64,000 nucleotides of DNA from Cliona cf. orientalis (lineage: Eukaryota > Porifera > Demospongiae > Clionaida > Clionaidae): NCBI GenBank assembly GCA_963930775.1, contig OZ005702.1, positions 5,828,001-5,892,000 on the forward strand. Direction: 5' to 3'. The notes under the pieces are model-generated. The model had not been told where the DNA came from. It made no database searches and saw only the letters and a list, made by a program, of their open reading frames with translations. The position numbers and the translations under genes were made by a program. Positions 25,446 through 36,098 of the stretch are shown here, piece by piece (the first letter of the stretch is position 1; each line of letters starts with the position of its first letter).

Positions 25446-26187
25446 GTGAGTCACTGAGTTCACTGGTACATGTCAGAGCAGATGGGTAGATAACATCAAA
25501 GAGTGGGAGTGAATAGGAGCATGAATTTGGTACGCTGAAAGTTAGTGCTCAGACCCCCTCCTCCTCCCTCCCCCTATTCTTAATGCCACACTTGGAAATA
25601 AATAACATGGTAAACTATTATTACCCCGCACGTGCATGTGCAGCAAGGGATGAAGCAATTGGTTTGTGTGTTAAGTATTATTATTGTCAGCATGAAAATC
25701 GCCAGATTTTGAGATTCAGAGCAATTCATGACAAATCTGTTGAAATCATCAAAAAATTTGCAACATTATATGCTTCGAATCGTTTGATAAGTCGCGCGAG
25801 TGTCATAAACACTGCATTGGCCACGCCTATCGACCGCACCCCCTTATGCTTTCTGCTCATGCACACAACCCAGAAGAGGTTGGCCACACATCATGATACG
25901 TCATGTGCATGTGACTAAAATTAGCGTTCGTGCATAATTTGTGATATAGTACTGTTTCGATCGCCGATTTAGTCAAAGACGACTTTCTTGGCCTGACAGT
26001 CTACACTAAGACCACCCGTTTAACCCTCTCGCGGGCAACGTCGCAATTTTGCACCACGCGTTGCTTCATTGAATGGGCGGGGGCGCAATTCTGCACCAGC
26101 TGCTATAGTGGCGGCTGCTTAGCGCGAACGGCTCCACGATCGATTGCAAAGCAGTAGCGTCTATAAAGGCTAACTACTATCTGAACG

Positions 26188-28359
26188 ATGGCCCGCTCAA
26201 TGAACCGGCTGACACACACCTACTTGCCGTCTGACCCCGACTTCATTCTCGAGTACATGGCTGGACTGGCGTCCGATGATAGCGACGATGATTTTGATGG
26301 TTATTTACTATCGGATGACGAACCAGAAGGTAAGCTGTAGTATATTATTTACATTATAATCTTCATGAAAATGTAGTAAGAACATTACATAAATGCTAGC
26401 TACACTATAAGCCCTTGATAAGGCTACATAAATGCTAAACTATAAGGCATGGCTATAAATGCTGAACTACCTATGATATAAACTACACACCAGAACCAAG
26501 CAGCTCCAGCAGCAGCTCCTCCCCCTCTGGACACTCCTCTCCTAATCATCCATCCAGTGACTCTTCCTGTATGGACACCTCCCACAGCCTGTCCGGTAGC
26601 TCTTCCTCCTCTTCTCATGGTTCCATGTCCAGCAGCTCATCCTCCACTCACCGCTCCTCCAATGGCTTGTTCTCGTCTCATGGCTCCCCTGCAACTGATG
26701 ATAGTGGTACTACCTCAACTCCCAGAAGTGGCCCAACCCCATTCACAGGCAGTCCTGGTGTGGCAACTCACATGACGAACACGATGTCCCCAGTTGATTG
26801 CTTTCTCCAGCTGTTCGACGAGAATATCCTGGAGCATATTCATAAAGAAAGTCTTCGCTACCTTGAGCAATACATAGAGGACAACAAGGAGTACCTGGAT
26901 CAACATCCAAAGGCACGCGTCCACGAGCTCTCACGACATCCCATCACTCCGGAGGATATAAAGGCATTCATAGCAATTCTTATCGGCATGGGTTTGTGTG
27001 GATTTCCTTCAATCAGGTAAGTCACTATCAAAAATACAATAAAAATAAATGTTTGCCATGCCATGCTATCATACGAATAATATTATACAGGAGCTATTGG
27101 AGTAACAGCTGGCCTTACCAGAACAACAATTTCCGTGACATCATGTCAAGTCACCGATTTGAATTGCTGCTGAAGTTCTTGCACCTCAACGACTCGAAGA
27201 AACAGCCAGCACGAGGGCAACCTGGGTACGACAAATTGTACAAAGTACGTCCTTTGCTTGATGCAGTGGTTAAGAATTTTCAGGCCAACTACACACCATC
27301 CGAGAACCTATCAATTGACGAGAGCATGATAGGTTTCAAAGGGAGGCTTGCTTTCCTGCAGTACATGCCAAAGAAGCCACAAAAGTGGGGGATGAAGGCC
27401 TGGGTACTTGCGGATGCTGCTAATGGGTATGTTTGGAATTGGAAGCTGTATACTGGTAAAGAAGAAAACATACCTACTTCTGATCTCGGACTGGCACACC
27501 GGGTGGTGCTGGATTTGCTGGACGATGCTAGGCTGAAGAACAAGGGCTACCGTGTCTTCGTAGACAACTTCTACAGCAGTCCAGCCCTCTTTCAGGATCT
27601 GCTAGAGGAGGGGTTCGAGGCCTGCGGCACGCTGAGGTCTAACAGGAAGGGAATTCCAGAGGATGTGAAGACCGCAAAACTGAGAAAAGGGGAGAGCCAC
27701 TTCAGCAAGAATGATTCCTTGCTCTTTATGTAGTGGAAAGATAAGAGGGACGTACTGATGTTGAGCACCTTTCATGATGACACGTTCATTGAGAAGCGGC
27801 GGCGCACACGCTTGGCCACAGATGGAGTAGAGGTGATAGAAAAGCCTGCAGTTGTGGAAGCATACAACCAGAACATGGGAGGTGTGGACAAAGGTAAGTA
27901 CCCTAATAAAATTACATATTTCAACTTACCACATGTTTATCTTTAGCTGATCAGATGATCCTATATTATGGATTTGCACACCGCTCCATCAAGTGGTGGA
28001 AGCGTGTGTTTTTCCATATTCTTGACACGGCCATCGTCAACGCTCACATCCTCTACAACGCAATGTCAGATGTAAAGCTCACTCAGCTTGAATTTCGACG
28101 GGCAGTTGCGGAGGGTTTGCTAGGAGAGTACGAGACAACTCAAGTCCGTTGTCGCGCACAAGATCCTAACCTTCCACTCCGACTGAGAGGAAGACCATTT
28201 CCGGAGCCTGTACCAGATGGTCGTCCAGACTGTCACGTCTGCAGTGACAGGAGAGCAGGTCACAGACATCAGACACAATACCGCTGTAAAGTGTGTAAAA
28301 CTCCCCTTTGCCTTTATCCGTGCTTTGAGAAGTATCACACTCTCCTCAACTACAAGTAG
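26188..28359 (+). pseudogene. piggyBac transposase, four exons, one internal stop codon
   Basis: It catalyses DNA cut-and-paste transposition at TTAA. The exons are 26188-26329, 26494-27016, 27091-27893 and 27947-28359, all joining in frame with GT-AG introns. An acidic and Ser-rich N-terminus precedes the core, which carries the three catalytic Asp: NLSIDESMIGFKGR, VFVDNFYSSP and NMGGVDKADQ. The C-terminal Cys-rich domain (CHVC, CKVC, CLYPCFEKYH) is complete. A single TAG at 27731-27733, between SLLFM and WKDKRDV, interrupts an otherwise intact frame. Without readthrough this copy cannot make full-length enzyme. Confidence 0.92.
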
Positions 28360-28679
28360 TATAGACGTTATCTCCTGACATCATAATCCTAATCATGAGA
28401 TTGTCAAGATATCATTCACTCATATTATTATTATGCATGTAGTCACATTTACATGTATGGTTGATTTCAAGCCTATCTCCTCACAGATGACGATGGCTAG
28501 ATACAAAACTAGGTATTGTCATTCTCACCTTGCACCTGAAACATTGCACATAGCCATCACCATCTGTTTACTGACCAACGTGATGGGGAGAGAGAATCCA
28601 CCCGATAAGATGGCTTCGAGCAATAAGAATGCCACACTTCAATTTTATGACCAGGAGCCTTCCCCTACACTTGTTGATC

Positions 28680-28855
28680 TGACCACTCCCACCACACAGC
28701 ACTGGATAATACATCCAGCGCTGTGTGGTGGGAGTGATCAGGGCAACAAGAGTAGCCCTAGGGCCCCACCCCCTCCCCTACTATTGTTGATCTGATCACT
28801 CCCACCACACAGTGCTGGATACAATTCATCCAGCACTGTGTGGCAGGAGTGATCA
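28680..28855. repeat. two tandem foldbacks inside piggyBac
   Basis: Two near-identical perfect or near-perfect hairpins lie at 28680-28740 and 28793-28855. Each has arms of about 27 bp built on TGATCACTCCCACCACACAG and a loop of 5 to 7 bases. They are tandem copies with a period of about 113 bp, followed by a poly-C run near 28884. They could be subterminal structure or a small foldback element. Confidence 0.7.
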
Positions 28856-29498
28856 GGTCAACAAGAGTAGCCCTCCCTCTCCCCCCCCCCCCCCCCACCC
28901 CCTAGCTTAGTAAATATTCATATGAATGAATGAGACTAGAGTACATGAACCAGCTATAAACCTCACAGCAACCAACTGCTGTTTACATGCATATCCTTCC
29001 AGCTATAAATAACTGCCAACTTCATTATTTTCCCATAGTTGATTCTTGGGTTATACAACCTTTCTTTAGTAGAGTTTAGCTACTCTTACCTTTTCAACCT
29101 GCCGTTCTTATCTCCTAGCCATGCCATCGCTCCAGAAAGCCAACGGACACGCTCGCGATCGAAGAGTATAGTTGAACAACGGTCTACAGAACGAGAACCG
29201 TTTGAATTTATGGCCGATTTTATACTCAAGGCTTACCTTGTCAACCCTTCTCTCTCTGTGTGAAGTTTCAAATCTTCAGGACAACGTATCTTCGACGTGG
29301 ATAGCCAGAAACGTCAGCGAGTCACGCGCTTAGTTGGGCGGAGCCCAACCTTCGCGGGGAGAGGGGGAAGGTTGGGAATCACGCGTATACCCGGATTTGT
29401 TCCAACTGCAGAAAAATTGCAGTCCAATCAGATTGCAGGATTCAAGTGGCTCAAGTGGCTGTTAACCGCGAGCTTAGCGAGAAGCGTGAATCGGCTGG

Positions 29499-30853
29499 TT
29501 GGTGATGTTCACGGCGAACGCAGTTCGGGAAGCGGCTGTTGCTGCCAGTAGGACGATGGGCTACGAAGGGATGAAGTCAGAGCAGCTGCAGATCGTGGAA
29601 TCCTTCGTGACTGGCCATGACGTGTTTGGAGTGCTTCCAACGGGATACGGGAAGAGTCTGTGCTATGCCTGTCTACCAGCGGTGTTTGATTGCTTGCTTC
29701 AAAAACCTACCGGATTCAGTATCGTGCTAGTTGTCTCCCCACTTGTAGCCCTCATGAAAGACCAGGTAACAAATGTCAGCCTTGTGTGATGTTGGAATAC
29801 TTCATAAAACCAATCTACATGTATGTACAGGTGGCTAGTTATTCTGCTAAAGGGCACAGAGCCGCCAAGGTCACAGGAGACAGCAACAAATCCCTGAGGA
29901 GAGCGGTGCAAGAGGGTGAATACCAGTTGGTGTACATCACTCCTGAGCTGTTGGTCACTGTTGGCGTGTGGAGAAAGATGCTGGTTGGAGAAGTTTACAG
30001 TGAACGGTTGAGGGCTTTTGTTATAGACGAAGCACATACTGTGAAGAAATGGTGAGCATTAATTAAAGTTTATAGAGGTGGATAGACCAAGTATTGCTGT
30101 CTAATGCAGGGTGAGAGTTTTCGTGCCATCATGGAGAGGTTAGGAGAAGTAAGAAGCTTGCTGCCGCAACATGTGAATATACTAGCCTTGACTGCCACAG
30201 CTACCAAGGAAGTTCGCATAAAAGTTGGAAATACCTTAGGCATGGTGAGACCTGTTGTAGTTGCTCTCTCTCCTTGCAAGAAGAACCTGTGTTACAGCGT
30301 TGTGGCATTTACGACCGTCAGTGAGACGTTCAAACCGTTGCTCGACCGACTGAAGAAGGACAGGAAAACTTGTCCAAGAACAATAGTTTACTGTCAATCG
30401 TTCAACACGTGTGCGGACATTTACCTTTATCTAGCTCATGGTTTGGGTTTTCAACTTACTGAGCCGATGGATGCTCCGAACGTTCCAAGGTTTCGACTTG
30501 TTGACATGTTCACAAGCGTTACAGACCAACACCATAAAGAGGAAATTATTTCCTTGTTCACTAAGCCGAGTCAATTAAGGGTAGTCATTGCAACCATTGC
30601 CTTTGGACTAGGACTTGATTGTCCCGATGTACGGCAAATCGTCCATGTTGGGTTGCCAGAGGACATTGAGTCCTACATCCAAGAAACTGGACGTGCAGGG
30701 AGAGATGGGAGGCCAGCGCTAGCAACTCTGCTGAAAGCAAGGACTTATCACCTCTGTGAGAAAAGCATGAAAGAGTATGCAGCAAACACTACGGTGTGTA
30801 GAAGAGATGTTCTTTTCCAGTCTATGGAGAAATACACACGAGCATTTAGGTAG
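29499..30853 (+). CDS. RecQ-like DEAH helicase of the 5.9 kb transposon
   Basis: The exons are about 29499-29765, 29831-30051 and 30110-30853. Superfamily 2 motifs are present in order: I LPTGYGKS, Ia SPLVALMKDQ, II DEAH, III ALTATAT, a V-like motif near IAFGLGLDCPDVRQ and VI QETGRAGRDG. At about 415 residues it is a bare helicase core without RQC or HRDC domains. RecQ enzymes unwind DNA 3' to 5', and in a transposon it may process ends or forks. At the second intron, GT-AG splicing leaves the frame off by one: the exon ends AAATG before GTGAGC, where AAATGG would be expected. A one-base loss in a G run, real or a read error, would explain this. The start codon (29499 or 29505) is uncertain. 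Confidence 0.85.
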
Positions 30854-31039
30854 TAGCTGTATGTACTGTGACATTTGTGCTCATTCATGTAATTGTGAAT
30901 GTTGTCATGAAAATTTGGCTTCCTTTGTTACTTTGTAAAGTTAATCAATACTACTACCTCTGGAGTCATTCAAGTTTGTTCAGTTTTACATGCACGTTTA
31001 TGTGTTGATAATTATTATTAAATTTTAAATGTGTTGAAG

Positions 31040-34000
31040 TTACTGACCATTAGCACGACAAGTGTGGTCAAAGGTATGAATGAAGAGAATTACAATTATC
31101 CTGATGACTAATGTCATTATGAAGTTATTATGACAGTGTAACACATAGAGTTTAAGTCGTTGTGTCATCCAATCAAGCAGGTCTTTTCGGGGTACGGACT
31201 GCAGCAAGTCCTTGCCCTTAGGAAAGTGTTGGTGCCTTCTACCCTCTTGAATGGAAAATGCTTGTGAACTGACCAACTCCTCCACGGCAATGGCGATGTC
31301 CTTTGTCGCACGGGGCTTTTTGTACTTGCTAGACCCAAAATTAAGAGATATTTCACAATCAAATTGGTCCAACACATGCGACAGGGTACCAATGCATCGA
31401 CCGACTCTTGCAATTGCCCCCACAGTTTTGTTAGAACTGAGGTTCTTGATCGCATCCTTCGCCAGGCGATTCAGGTGTTCCATGTGAAGGTCAAGTGGTA
31501 TGTTTCTCCCCGGCCGACCATGCACATTGACAAAGCGACTCCACATCAACTGATTGGAGAGTCTTGGTGATAGGGCGTACAAATGCTGGTAAAGCAAGTT
31601 GAAGGACTCACATGCATAGTTGGTGCACTGAGCTGCACGAAATACTGGCATAAAATATCGCCAGCATCGGACAACACGCTCCCCATCACCCTCTCTTATA
31701 GCATCGGCAAACTCCATATAGAGACATCCAATTCTTAAAAGCTGAATGGAGTAGCTCGATACACCATCATCTGCTGAGTGAACGTAGCTGGTCGATGTCA
31801 ACATTGTGCCAAAGCTAAGTGAGATGAACTTGTCAAACACCTGCATACACAGCTCCTCCATAATCACCTTCCTCTCTTCCTTCTCTTTCATCCACACTTG
31901 ATCAGCATCTTTTAGCACTGAATCATCTGGAGTATCATTAGTGGACTCTAATTTGAACGTGGCCATAGCAGCTGCAACGACGTGACTTGAAATCACTGTA
32001 TCAAGGAAGTCTTCGCACGCGTTGAAGTCCTTCTTTGGCACGTTTGGGACATTGCTGCGATGAATCCGATTTCTGAGCTGGTATAGTGTGCCACGATCTC
32101 CAGCAGAACGCAGAGAGTAGAAATACTTCCAAATGATCTACAAAGAAGAATAACGGAAACTTATATTGAACCGGGTTTTTAAGGCAGTACAGCAATATTT
32201 TCAATACAGTAGCCGATCTAATTAACGCGCCTCGCTAATAGATGCGCCACCTAGGCCTAAAGTGCAATTTTTACGTTCTATTTAAATGCACCCACCCACA
32301 CGTCTCTATACTTTCGTGTACAAATTTTGTGCGCAAACGCTAATTTCCACGCTCTAATAGCGCGCCACCCAGCACTTGTAATTAGGCTCGTTAATTAGAA
32401 CGTGTACGGTACCTATTGTTCTTACCCCAAGTAGTGCTTGCTTGGTATGCCAGTCAGTTGCAGTTGGTATAGGCCTTCAAACCTGCTTGTAGGTGAGTCA
32501 GAATTGCACTTTGCCTTTTTAGCACCTCGAGCTCTTGCCGCTGTGAGTTGATCACCAGCGACAATAATTGGGAAAGATCTGGCTTTGTAAAACTCGACAT
32601 TTTCATCCAGGCTTGGCACATAAACCTCCTCTGAAGACTCAACGATTGGTATGTACTGGTGCATATGTGCCATGATGTCCACCATCTCATCATTCTTCGT
32701 TTCGTTTTTTGGTATAATTCCCAATGGCACCTAATGGTAGATTGCACACCTCATCAAATGTAAAAACAACAACATTAACAGCTCACCACATCTGACTTCA
32801 TCGACATCTCCTTGTAATATGCGTGCTCTATATGCCACTCCACTACACCATCGAAGGCCACCTTGAAAAAACCCAAGTTGTTGTATAGGATCCGTGAAAT
32901 AAGGACGCATATGTTTCTCCGTATAGCCACGTCATCCTCAGTAGATGGAAGTAGCGATAATGCCAGCTGCAGTTGATCAGCTCCATCACACACAATAGTC
33001 TTTTCTCCTAGGTCACCAAAATCAATTCTATCCTTCACAGCGTAGAAGTGGAAGTAGTGTAGTGATGTGGCAGTGGCATTACTATCGGTACGGATATAGC
33101 GACGCCGGATGATCTTGTCAATGTTGTCTCCACACAAGGTGTAAATAGGCACTATAACAGAGTGAACAATACTATGATAACACCAGGGCATTGTTACCTT
33201 GCTCCAATTGTTTCACTAAGGTATTACAAGAATGTACCTAGATCATCATCAACTGAATGTGGTGGAGATGCTTTTTGCTGAGAACTGTCATGTGTTTGTA
33301 GGATGAGAGACGATGATTGAGGGAGTTGTGAAGTCTCCGCACCGTCAGCATCTGTGTGTTATTACAATGATTACATGACAATGTACATGTAATTAACACT
33401 CATTATGCTATAATTATCATTCCCCTACTTTGAGACCGTCTAGTACATGATAAATCCTTACCACATGATTGGAAATCGTCACCATCGTCAACATGGCTGT
33501 CCTCTTCTTCATCACCAGAGCCATCACTGTCCATGCTGCTGTCACTAGACGAGTAGTATTCATCATCTGAGGTGAGCGGTGAGAAACTACGAAAAGAAGC
33601 ATCTGAATCGGAATCATCAGAGTCATCACTGGAGCTGAGGTCTTCAAAATCATCCATTTCCTCCGGCAAAAGCGGGGTTGACTCTTCAGTGCCGCAAGGA
33701 TGTCCCTGTATGTCACGTAAAATGGATAGTGACAAAACAACCTGTCTAAGAGTGACAAGTAAAACGATCTCAGATGAGTTGTCGACCATGGACTTAGCAA
33801 TGCTATATCCTCACAAAGTAACATGTACGCATGGAGTTAATAACTTTTGTTGTCGCCCATCGTACTGGAGCTATAAACCTACACAAGTTTCAGAAGTCTG
33901 GAGCAAATTCAGCAGGCCATCTCTCCACTTCTTTGCTTTTTCATCAAATGTAGACCCAACCTTGTTTAGAAGACGGATCAAACTTGGGTGAGACACCGTC

Positions 34001-35015
34001 AAATTTTGCTTTTGAAGACGAGTATAGGTCTGCAACATAATTAATAGTCATTTTCATGATAATCTAAATCAATGCTGTGTTATTCACAGACACTGTTAGG
34101 CACACAAACGTACCTGCTTGGATGAATGACCTCCATAGAGAAGTAGGGAGATGATTTTCTGGATGAGATTCATTCTTGGATCGCGGTTTCGCAGAAGAAG
34201 AGCCACGCAGACACACATCACAACATTGAAGTTGGTACTGCTCACTCTTATCTTACAAGTAGCTTGGAGAATACTCTTTAGCACTGGTGCAAACTTAGAG
34301 ATCTCACAGTTGAAACTCTCCCAGGAGAAGGTCTTAATACACTGGGGATCATCACGTTTGAGAATGGAATTTGCGCTGTGCGAACAGAACTTCTTTATCT
34401 CGGCATGTACCATCTTTCCCACTAACTTCAGAATGTGCTTTTGAACAGCGCGATCCTTCATACACTCAGCTGCTATGGCTGTCTTGCTCCTGCGTGCAAC
34501 AGCTTTGCCTAGATGTTTACGTTGAGGAGTTAAAAGAAACATCCTCGGCCTCTTATATCCAACACGCACCTAGGAATAAAAAATGGGTAATGTACACTTT
34601 ACAACACAACAAGCGTGATTCATACCGATACTAATGGTGAATTTCTGCTTTCTCCAGACTGAGAGGGCAAACCAGCAGCGTCCCTCTTCTCCACCCTTGG
34701 CCTCTTTCTTCGCTCCTGCTGGGTTTCTTGGCTAAGTTGGCTTTCAATAGCTCTAGCAATATTGTCATGCAGGGTCTTGTGGAGCTTGGAGAACCTCTCA
34801 TAGCCCGAAAAGCACTTTCTGCACATTTTCCCTGGGACTTCTCGACCAGCAAGCAGGGTGTCGGCACATAGCCTGTCGTCATCGTCTTGCACATTTTCAA
34901 ATACTGCCTTCCAAGCATCGACTACTCCTTCTGCCGGCGGACCTTGAAGCGCTCTCCTATCTGCAGCACGTTGCGCTAAGTCTTTGCCGCACCCCAAGCA
35001 CAACAAAGCCGACAT
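31040..35015 (-). CDS. DUF6589-family protein, candidate transposase of the 5.9 kb element
   Basis: Eight exons read leftward: 35015-34626 (N-terminal CxxC...CxxC zinc-finger-like region), 34569-34114, 34029-33883 (LLLYGGHSSKQ|TYTRLQKQNL across the junction), 33705-33462 (acidic), 33351-33238, 33151-32787 (GDNIDKIIRRRYIR and SLHYFHFYAVKDR), 32730-32426 (VAGDQLTAARARGAKKAK) and 32137-31040 (NYACESFNLLYQH). The protein is about 1,040 residues. The GDNxD, GDQLT and CESFN blocks are the conserved acidic positions I recognise from DUF6589 proteins, which recur in many invertebrate and fungal genomes. They could be the D-D-E set of an RNase H-fold transposase, which is inference. Six introns keep frame. 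The last is off by one, again at a G run beside the donor. Confidence 0.75.
32207..32409. mobile_element. TA-flanked MITE (203 bp) in an intron of the DUF6589 gene
   Basis: It is flanked by TA (32205-32206 and 32410-32411). The termini are CAGTAGCCGATCTAATTAAC at the left and CCGTACACGTTCTAATTAAC at the right when reverse-complemented. It lies between exons 7 and 8 of the DUF6589 gene and is the innermost level of the nested stack. Confidence 0.65.
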
Positions 35016-35282
35016 TTTGTAGCCACGAGGTCAGAGAAGAGTTATTTCACACCCCTAGCTGCACGTTGTAAGTACTGGGCGGAGCCTCAGCTGAGCCTCG
35101 CGGTTTCTCACCTACTTGAGATTACAAGTTACATAAGTGGCAGTGGAACAAATCCGGGTATACGCGTGATTCCCAACCTTCCCCCTCTCCCCGCGAAGGT
35201 TGGGCTCCGCCCAACTATCACGCGCTATGGTCGCCTTGCCCACCGGGTAAAAACGCAATAATTATCGCTGCCCGCGAAAGGG

Positions 35283-36098
35283 TTAATGGCAAAACGGAAA
35301 TGATGTTTTACTGCGTATGATTACGCACGCACGCACGCGTACGTATTACGCGAGTACACGCAATAATCTCGTATACGTCCGCATATCTATCCGTGTACCG
35401 CGCCCTACCCAGGACAGAATGAATTTTTCTCGTTTTCGAAGGTTCGTTTCTCGAAGCGCCAATTCAAAGTTCCATTCAGCCAGAAAAGATCGAAAAATGG
35501 ACGAGCGAGTTGAAGTATCACGAAGAAAGTACTCAAGACGAAGAGTTGGTAGCTATAACCTAGCTAGTTTAGTAGCTAAAGTTTAGTATTTTCTTTGGTT
35601 GACAGTCTAGTTAACTACTACTAAGAAAATAGAACAGACTAAAGTGATAAATTATTTTCGATCTTCAAAGAGCGCTCATGGTGGCAGAGTGGTCCTGGAA
35701 GACTCGGGATTCAGCGGAATAACTGCTCTAGTACTTACCTACTTGTGGACCAAGTCCCCTAGCGCTGGTTTGATAGTTACTGATTTGCCCCCAATTCAAA
35801 GATGCCCTCAGCCATACGCAACCGAAATCTTTGTCATCTCTACATCGGTCATCTTGGCACGCTTAGTCTTGTTCTTGGTATCAAAGTGAAGCTTAGCTCT
35901 TCCTCTTTTCAATGGTACTTGAGATAGAACGATAGCTACCTCACACTAGAAGATACAGTTGTACATAGACATGCACTATTTTTGACCCCACATGCATGGC
36001 ATGCATATCATTAACCCCCATAGGCGCCATGCAAACCGCGCGTTGACATTAAAATGTATTGTACGTATATGGACTTCCGGTGGTCTTAGTGTAGACTG
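35283..36098. other. right part of the outer short-TIR element
   Basis: This is the sequence between the right TTAA of piggyBac and the right 20 bp terminus. Short open stretches (for example a basic peptide around 35420-35586) show no recognisable domain. An A-box-like TGGCAGAGTGG lies at about 35682 without a matching B box. Function is not evident. Confidence 0.4.

What the first reader, a model, noticed from the sequence alone, without database searches (positions are those of the whole stretch)
29331..35217. Possible new transposon superfamily: RecQ helicase plus DUF6589 with 74 bp TIRs and 9 bp target duplication
The boundaries are exact: perfect TIRs and the duplication TCACGCGCT, inserted in a piggyBac. 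The only proteins inside are a compact RecQ-like helicase and a large DUF6589 protein with conserved GDNxD, GDQLT and CESFN blocks. No known DDE family is recognised, so DUF6589 is the likely transposase and RecQ an accessory. This would give a function to a domain of unknown function.
Basis: partly seen in the sequence, partly recalled or inferred. Interest (0 to 1): 0.92.

Follow-up and report, generated by a model that had tools for sequence, protein, structure and literature searches.

The report
An AcademH (Academ) helicase-encoding DNA transposon
This is a real and recently mobile jumping gene that carries its own RecQ helicase, but it belongs to a kind already described (AcademH); what is added is good evidence that the protein family of unknown function DUF6589 is its transposase.

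Summary
Window 29331-35217 is a 5,887-bp element with perfect 74-bp TIRs and a 9-bp duplication, inserted in a piggyBac copy; two sister piggyBacs show the empty site. It carries two convergent genes: a RecQ-type helicase (+) and a DUF6589 protein (-).

A new superfamily is not supported. RecQ in Academ transposons is in print, and AcademH is reported as helicase-encoding with 9- or 10-bp duplications. In the host genome I examined 27 places and found both ends in 21 elements. All 21 run TAG...CTA: 18 have perfect 9-bp duplications, one a 9-bp with one mismatch, two 10-bp.

DUF6589 as transposase is well supported. Of 102 DUF6589 loci, 73 have a RecQ match within 2 kb, each downstream on the opposite strand (random mean 1.06). 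Three of the 29 others were sampled; all three carry a convergent, more diverged helicase. The predicted core of a homologue (pLDDT 87) is RNase H-like with a helical insertion, nearest P element and Hermes. The triad is probably GDN, GGDQ and the E of DLHxEHxN rather than CESFN.

As assembled the window copy looks broken, but near-identical short derivatives show recent mobilisation. Direct comparison with Repbase Academ transposases was not possible.

The parts
26020..35286 (+). host piggyBac copy (TTAA to TTAA) that the element interrupts near its right end
   Evidence: TTAA-CCC and GGG-TTAA ends; PF13843 and zf-Tnp_2; sister copies diverge just after the right GGGTTAA
29322..29330 (.). left target site duplication TCACGCGCT
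   Evidence: single copy in two empty sites
29331..29404 (+). left TIR, 74 bp, begins TAG
29505..29765 (+). RecQ-type helicase, exon A (DEAD part; start codon and splice site inferred)
   Evidence: PF00270 39.3 bits on ORF 29499-29786; exon ends read from the sequence
29831..30051 (+). helicase, exon B (DEAH box)
   Evidence: ORF 29690-30055 matches DEAD at 24.4 bits, below the cut-off of 26; splice sites inferred
30110..30853 (+). helicase, exon C (Helicase_C)
   Evidence: PF00271 54.1 bits; best solved relatives WRN, BLM and RecQ, E about 1e-20. Small length differences from the C15 copy alter the frame
31040..35015 (-). DUF6589 transposase gene, 8 inferred exons: 35015-34626, 34569-34114, 34029-33883, 33705-33462, 33351-33238, 33151-32787, 32730-32426, 32137-31040
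   Evidence: GT..AG exon ends; PF20231 128 bits on the last exon and 30.6 on exon 7; as assembled the frame is broken in exon 7 relative to the C15 copy
33126..33128 (-). proposed catalytic D1 (GDNxD)
   Evidence: 35 of 36 in alignment A5; beta-strand 72-83 of the model; position
32551..32553 (-). proposed catalytic D2 (GDQLT)
   Evidence: 49 of 51; just after strand 237-241; position
31478..31480 (-). proposed catalytic E (DLHMEHLN)
   Evidence: 118 of 118; helix 495-512; position
35144..35217 (-). right TIR, 74 bp, ends CTA
35218..35226 (.). right target site duplication TCACGCGCT

Best explanation
It is an AcademH-type DNA transposon of a sponge-like animal genome. The DUF6589 protein is a DDE transposase with an RNase H fold and a large helical insertion; it is inferred to bind the TAG...CTA TIRs, cut the element out and join it to target DNA with a 9-bp (at times 10-bp) stagger, which gives the duplication after gap repair. 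The convergent RecQ-type helicase is an accessory of transposition, inferred to unwind ends or gaps and perhaps to influence the stagger. Shown by sequence: element, ends, duplications, empty sites, both genes, their linkage and recent spread of short derivatives. Inferred: catalysis, cut-and-paste, the role of RecQ.
For: 74-bp TIRs and 9-bp duplication; empty sites. 21 elements with both ends among 27 places examined (window, L009-L021, L046-L049, L056-L064): all TAG...CTA; 18 perfect 9-bp, 1 9-bp with a mismatch, 2 10-bp. 73 of 102 DUF6589 loci with a RecQ match within 2 kb, all 73 downstream on the opposite strand, random mean 1.06 and maximum 6 in 200 trials; of the 29 others three were sampled and all three carry a convergent helicase (RecQ identity tested for one). 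RNase H-like predicted fold. Printed descriptions: RecQ in Academ (PMC3627910, passage); AcademH with helicase and 9- or 10-bp duplications (PMC10045372, passage).
Against: No Academ transposase sequence was at hand, so membership by transposase phylogeny is untested. Kojima 2020, which defines AcademH, is not held. Foldseek alone finds no significant match to the model (none at E <= 0.001; P element rank 19, E 1.2), and the first, shallow model (pLDDT 55) matched nothing meaningful. Duplications were found by scanning lengths 8-11 and 7-12 near the TIR ends. Six of the 27 places lack two recognisable ends (L019, L020, L021, L049, L057, L062).
Confidence: 0.93

Rival explanations
1. A new superfamily: RecQ plus DUF6589 with 9-bp duplications, unrelated to any described one.
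For: No held paper contains DUF6589; no Pfam DDE family other than DUF6589 matches the 8 ORFs scanned.
Against: RecQ in Academ and AcademH with 9- or 10-bp duplications are in print and match on the features that could be compared.
Confidence: 0.04
2. A KolobokH-like element: Kolobok transposons with a RecQ helicase.
For: KolobokH encodes RecQ, and one rhodophyte Kolobok has RecQ on the complementary strand (PMC9587614, passage).
Against: Kolobok makes TTAA-specific 4-bp duplications; here 21 of 21 elements with both ends have 9 or 10 bp and no TTAA target.
Confidence: 0.01
3. RecQ is the mobilising enzyme (a Helitron-like or peel-off mode) and DUF6589 is the accessory.
For: RecQ is a constant partner in the loci tested.
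Against: TIRs with fixed-length duplications and an RNase H-like DUF6589 with conserved acidic residues point to DDE catalysis.
Confidence: 0.02

Closest known systems
AcademH (lineage of the Academ superfamily)
   Same: helicase gene of RecQ type, TIRs, 9- or 10-bp duplications (PMC10045372 passage; PMC3627910 passage); DDD/E transposase superfamily (PMC9587614 passage)
   Different: no difference found; transposase phylogeny not compared
AcademX (Academ with XPG nuclease)
   Same: same superfamily by report
   Different: 3- or 4-bp duplications and a nuclease by report (that the nuclease is XPG is recalled); here 9-10 bp. The 4 XPG_I matches in this genome lie in loci of about 3.1 kb without a DUF6589 or RecQ match to my queries
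KolobokH
   Same: RecQ helicase with a DDD/E transposase
   Different: TTAA 4-bp duplications, fungi only by report
P element and hAT (Hermes) transposases
   Different: 8-bp duplications (recalled); no RecQ partner (recalled); a shared fold is not membership

Membership tests
AcademH | RecQ-type helicase gene inside the element | tested here: met
   PF00270 and PF00271; WRN, BLM, RecQ nearest; 73 of 102 DUF6589 loci
AcademH | 9- or 10-bp target site duplication | tested here: met
   21 of 21 elements with both ends, one with a mismatch
AcademH | terminal inverted repeats | tested here: met
   74 bp perfect; inverted ends in the other families
AcademH | DDD/E transposase | tested here: met
   RNase H-like predicted fold of a homologue (P0018) and conserved D, D, E; catalysis itself untested
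AcademH | transposase groups with Academ in sequence | not testable with these tools
   no Repbase Academ sequences; defining paper not held
AcademX | 3- or 4-bp duplication and nuclease | tested here: not met
   9-10 bp; RecQ instead
KolobokH | TTAA 4-bp duplication | tested here: not met
P element or hAT | 8-bp duplication (recalled) | tested here: not met
   18 of 21 perfect 9 bp, none 8 bp
P element or hAT | RNase H fold with helical insertion | tested here: met
   shared fold only

The most novel reading that the evidence does not exclude
DUF6589 (PF20231), now a family of unknown function, is as a whole the AcademH transposase: an RNase H-like DDE enzyme nearest in fold to P element and Hermes, with the catalytic E in DLHxEHxN; and the obligate convergent RecQ takes part in end processing and sets the unusual 9/10-bp stagger, so that AcademH is a helicase-assisted transposition system.
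Probability: 0.35. Interest if true: 0.45.

Novelty: new member of a known kind. Interest (0 to 1): 0.27.

Why it matters
It ties a Pfam family without function to a described transposon lineage and gives testable catalytic residues, so that genes annotated as DUF6589 domain-containing proteins can be recognised as transposases. The sponge-like genome holds many families with recent short derivatives, a good source for asking why a DNA transposon carries a RecQ helicase. The element itself is ordinary once recognised.

Tried and rejected
New superfamily: rejected after the paper passages. KolobokH: rejected on TTAA duplications. AcademX: rejected on duplication length; 4 XPG_I matches in the genome have no DUF6589 or RecQ match in their loci of about 3.1 kb.

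Led nowhere: first fold of P0001 on 12 sequences (pLDDT 55); Foldseek on the second model (no E <= 0.001 in PDB or viral library; the P element chains rank 19 and 26 in PDB); second homologue search from the Clytia protein (3 proteins). Paper searches: 8 used; DUF6589 in 0 papers, PF20231 only in an unrelated optics paper. P0007 was left out of alignment A5 (126 of 127 proteins). In one search, 20 of the 122 rows were dropped as second pieces of the same loci; only 102 of 338 and 150 of 246 first-look candidates had been scored, so counts are lower bounds; the lengths of contigs C3, C8 and C18 in the random control were guesses. NCBIfam was not searched (one search failed).

Full report
Element. 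Window 29331-35217 (5,887 bp) has perfect 74-bp inverted ends and the 9-bp duplication TCACGCGCT. It sits in a piggyBac. Two sister piggyBac copies show the uninterrupted site with one TCACGCGCT.

Copies. A search with the first 90 bases gave 25 matches in the window's own 217-Mb genome. I took the 13 other places: one near-full copy of 6,175 bp on C15, about 99% identical, eight derivatives of 315-331 bp and one of 123 bp with both ends, and three places with one end. The derivatives' aligned pieces of 100 bp or more are 93.6-100% identical to the full element. Four share one structure (227 bp of the left end and 105 of the right: L010, L012, L014, L016), so a deleted form has moved several times, inferred to be in trans.

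Genes. The plus strand holds a RecQ-type helicase in three inferred exons; the minus strand holds a DUF6589 gene in eight inferred exons. As assembled, both genes of the window copy carry small length differences from the C15 copy that break frames, and the C15 copy has a 279-bp insert and a small length difference in its last DUF6589 exon. Decay and assembly error were not told apart.

Linkage. The 20 best DUF6589 loci include 17 with a convergent RecQ match within about 4 kb, two of the 17 weak (L035 3e-4, L037 2e-5); L029, L040 and L041 had none. A wider region around L041 does carry one (L061). Genome-wide, 73 of 102 DUF6589 loci have a RecQ match within 2 kb (69 within 1 kb), every one downstream on the opposite strand; 200 random placements gave a mean of 1.06 and a maximum of 6. 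Of the 29 others I sampled three (L062-L064): all carry a convergent DEAD helicase exon, and one of these, the only one tested, is nearest RecQ.

Ends of other families. Of 13 wider regions (L046-L049, L056-L064), ten gave both ends, all TAG...CTA, nine with 9-bp and one (L058) with 10-bp duplications; L049, L057 and L062 gave none. Over all 27 places examined, 21 have both ends: 18 perfect 9-bp, one 9-bp with a mismatch (L013), two 10-bp (L015, L058). In the 18 the first base is a purine in 17 and the last a pyrimidine in 14, strand as held, not by element orientation.

Known or new. PMC3627910 (passage) lists RecQ helicase in Academ, citing Kapitonov et al. PMC10045372 (passage) states that AcademH generates 9 or 10 bp duplications and AcademX 3 or 4, and that the difference seems related to helicase and nuclease. 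Kojima 2020 (AcademH) is not held, so its details were not seen. The window element meets the features that could be tested. The name DUF6589 was in no paper of the library; the identity of DUF6589 with the AcademH transposase is therefore inferred from structure, linkage and ends, and may be known outside that library.

Host. All but one of the ten nearest proteins are from sponges or carry a label I take as Ephydatia (P0007); the other is from Clytia.

Noticed in passing
genome contig C1 (37.5 of 216.8 Mb): Holds 45 of 102 DUF6589 loci and 8 of 10 matches to the piggyBac flank: an unusually transposon-rich contig.
   Followed up: no
L009 (C15 copy): The 279-bp insert has inverted ends TGTGACG...CGTCACA and what looks like a 4-bp duplication: probably another short non-autonomous element (read by eye).
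   Followed up: partly
window 28665-28870: Alternating inverted 43-bp repeats, 88-91% complementary, inside the piggyBac.
   Followed up: no
window 29331-29404: The TIR strand folds on itself (-29.9 kcal/mol with RNA parameters, no shuffle control).
   Followed up: no
L062, L063, L064: A diverged DUF6589 lineage whose helicase escaped the RecQ search; two of the three show TIRs and 9-bp duplications.
   Followed up: partly
L011, L013, L015: Derivatives whose two halves both come from the left end of the element.
   Followed up: no
L064 7746-8975: An open frame that looks integrase-like by eye, next to the element.
   Followed up: no
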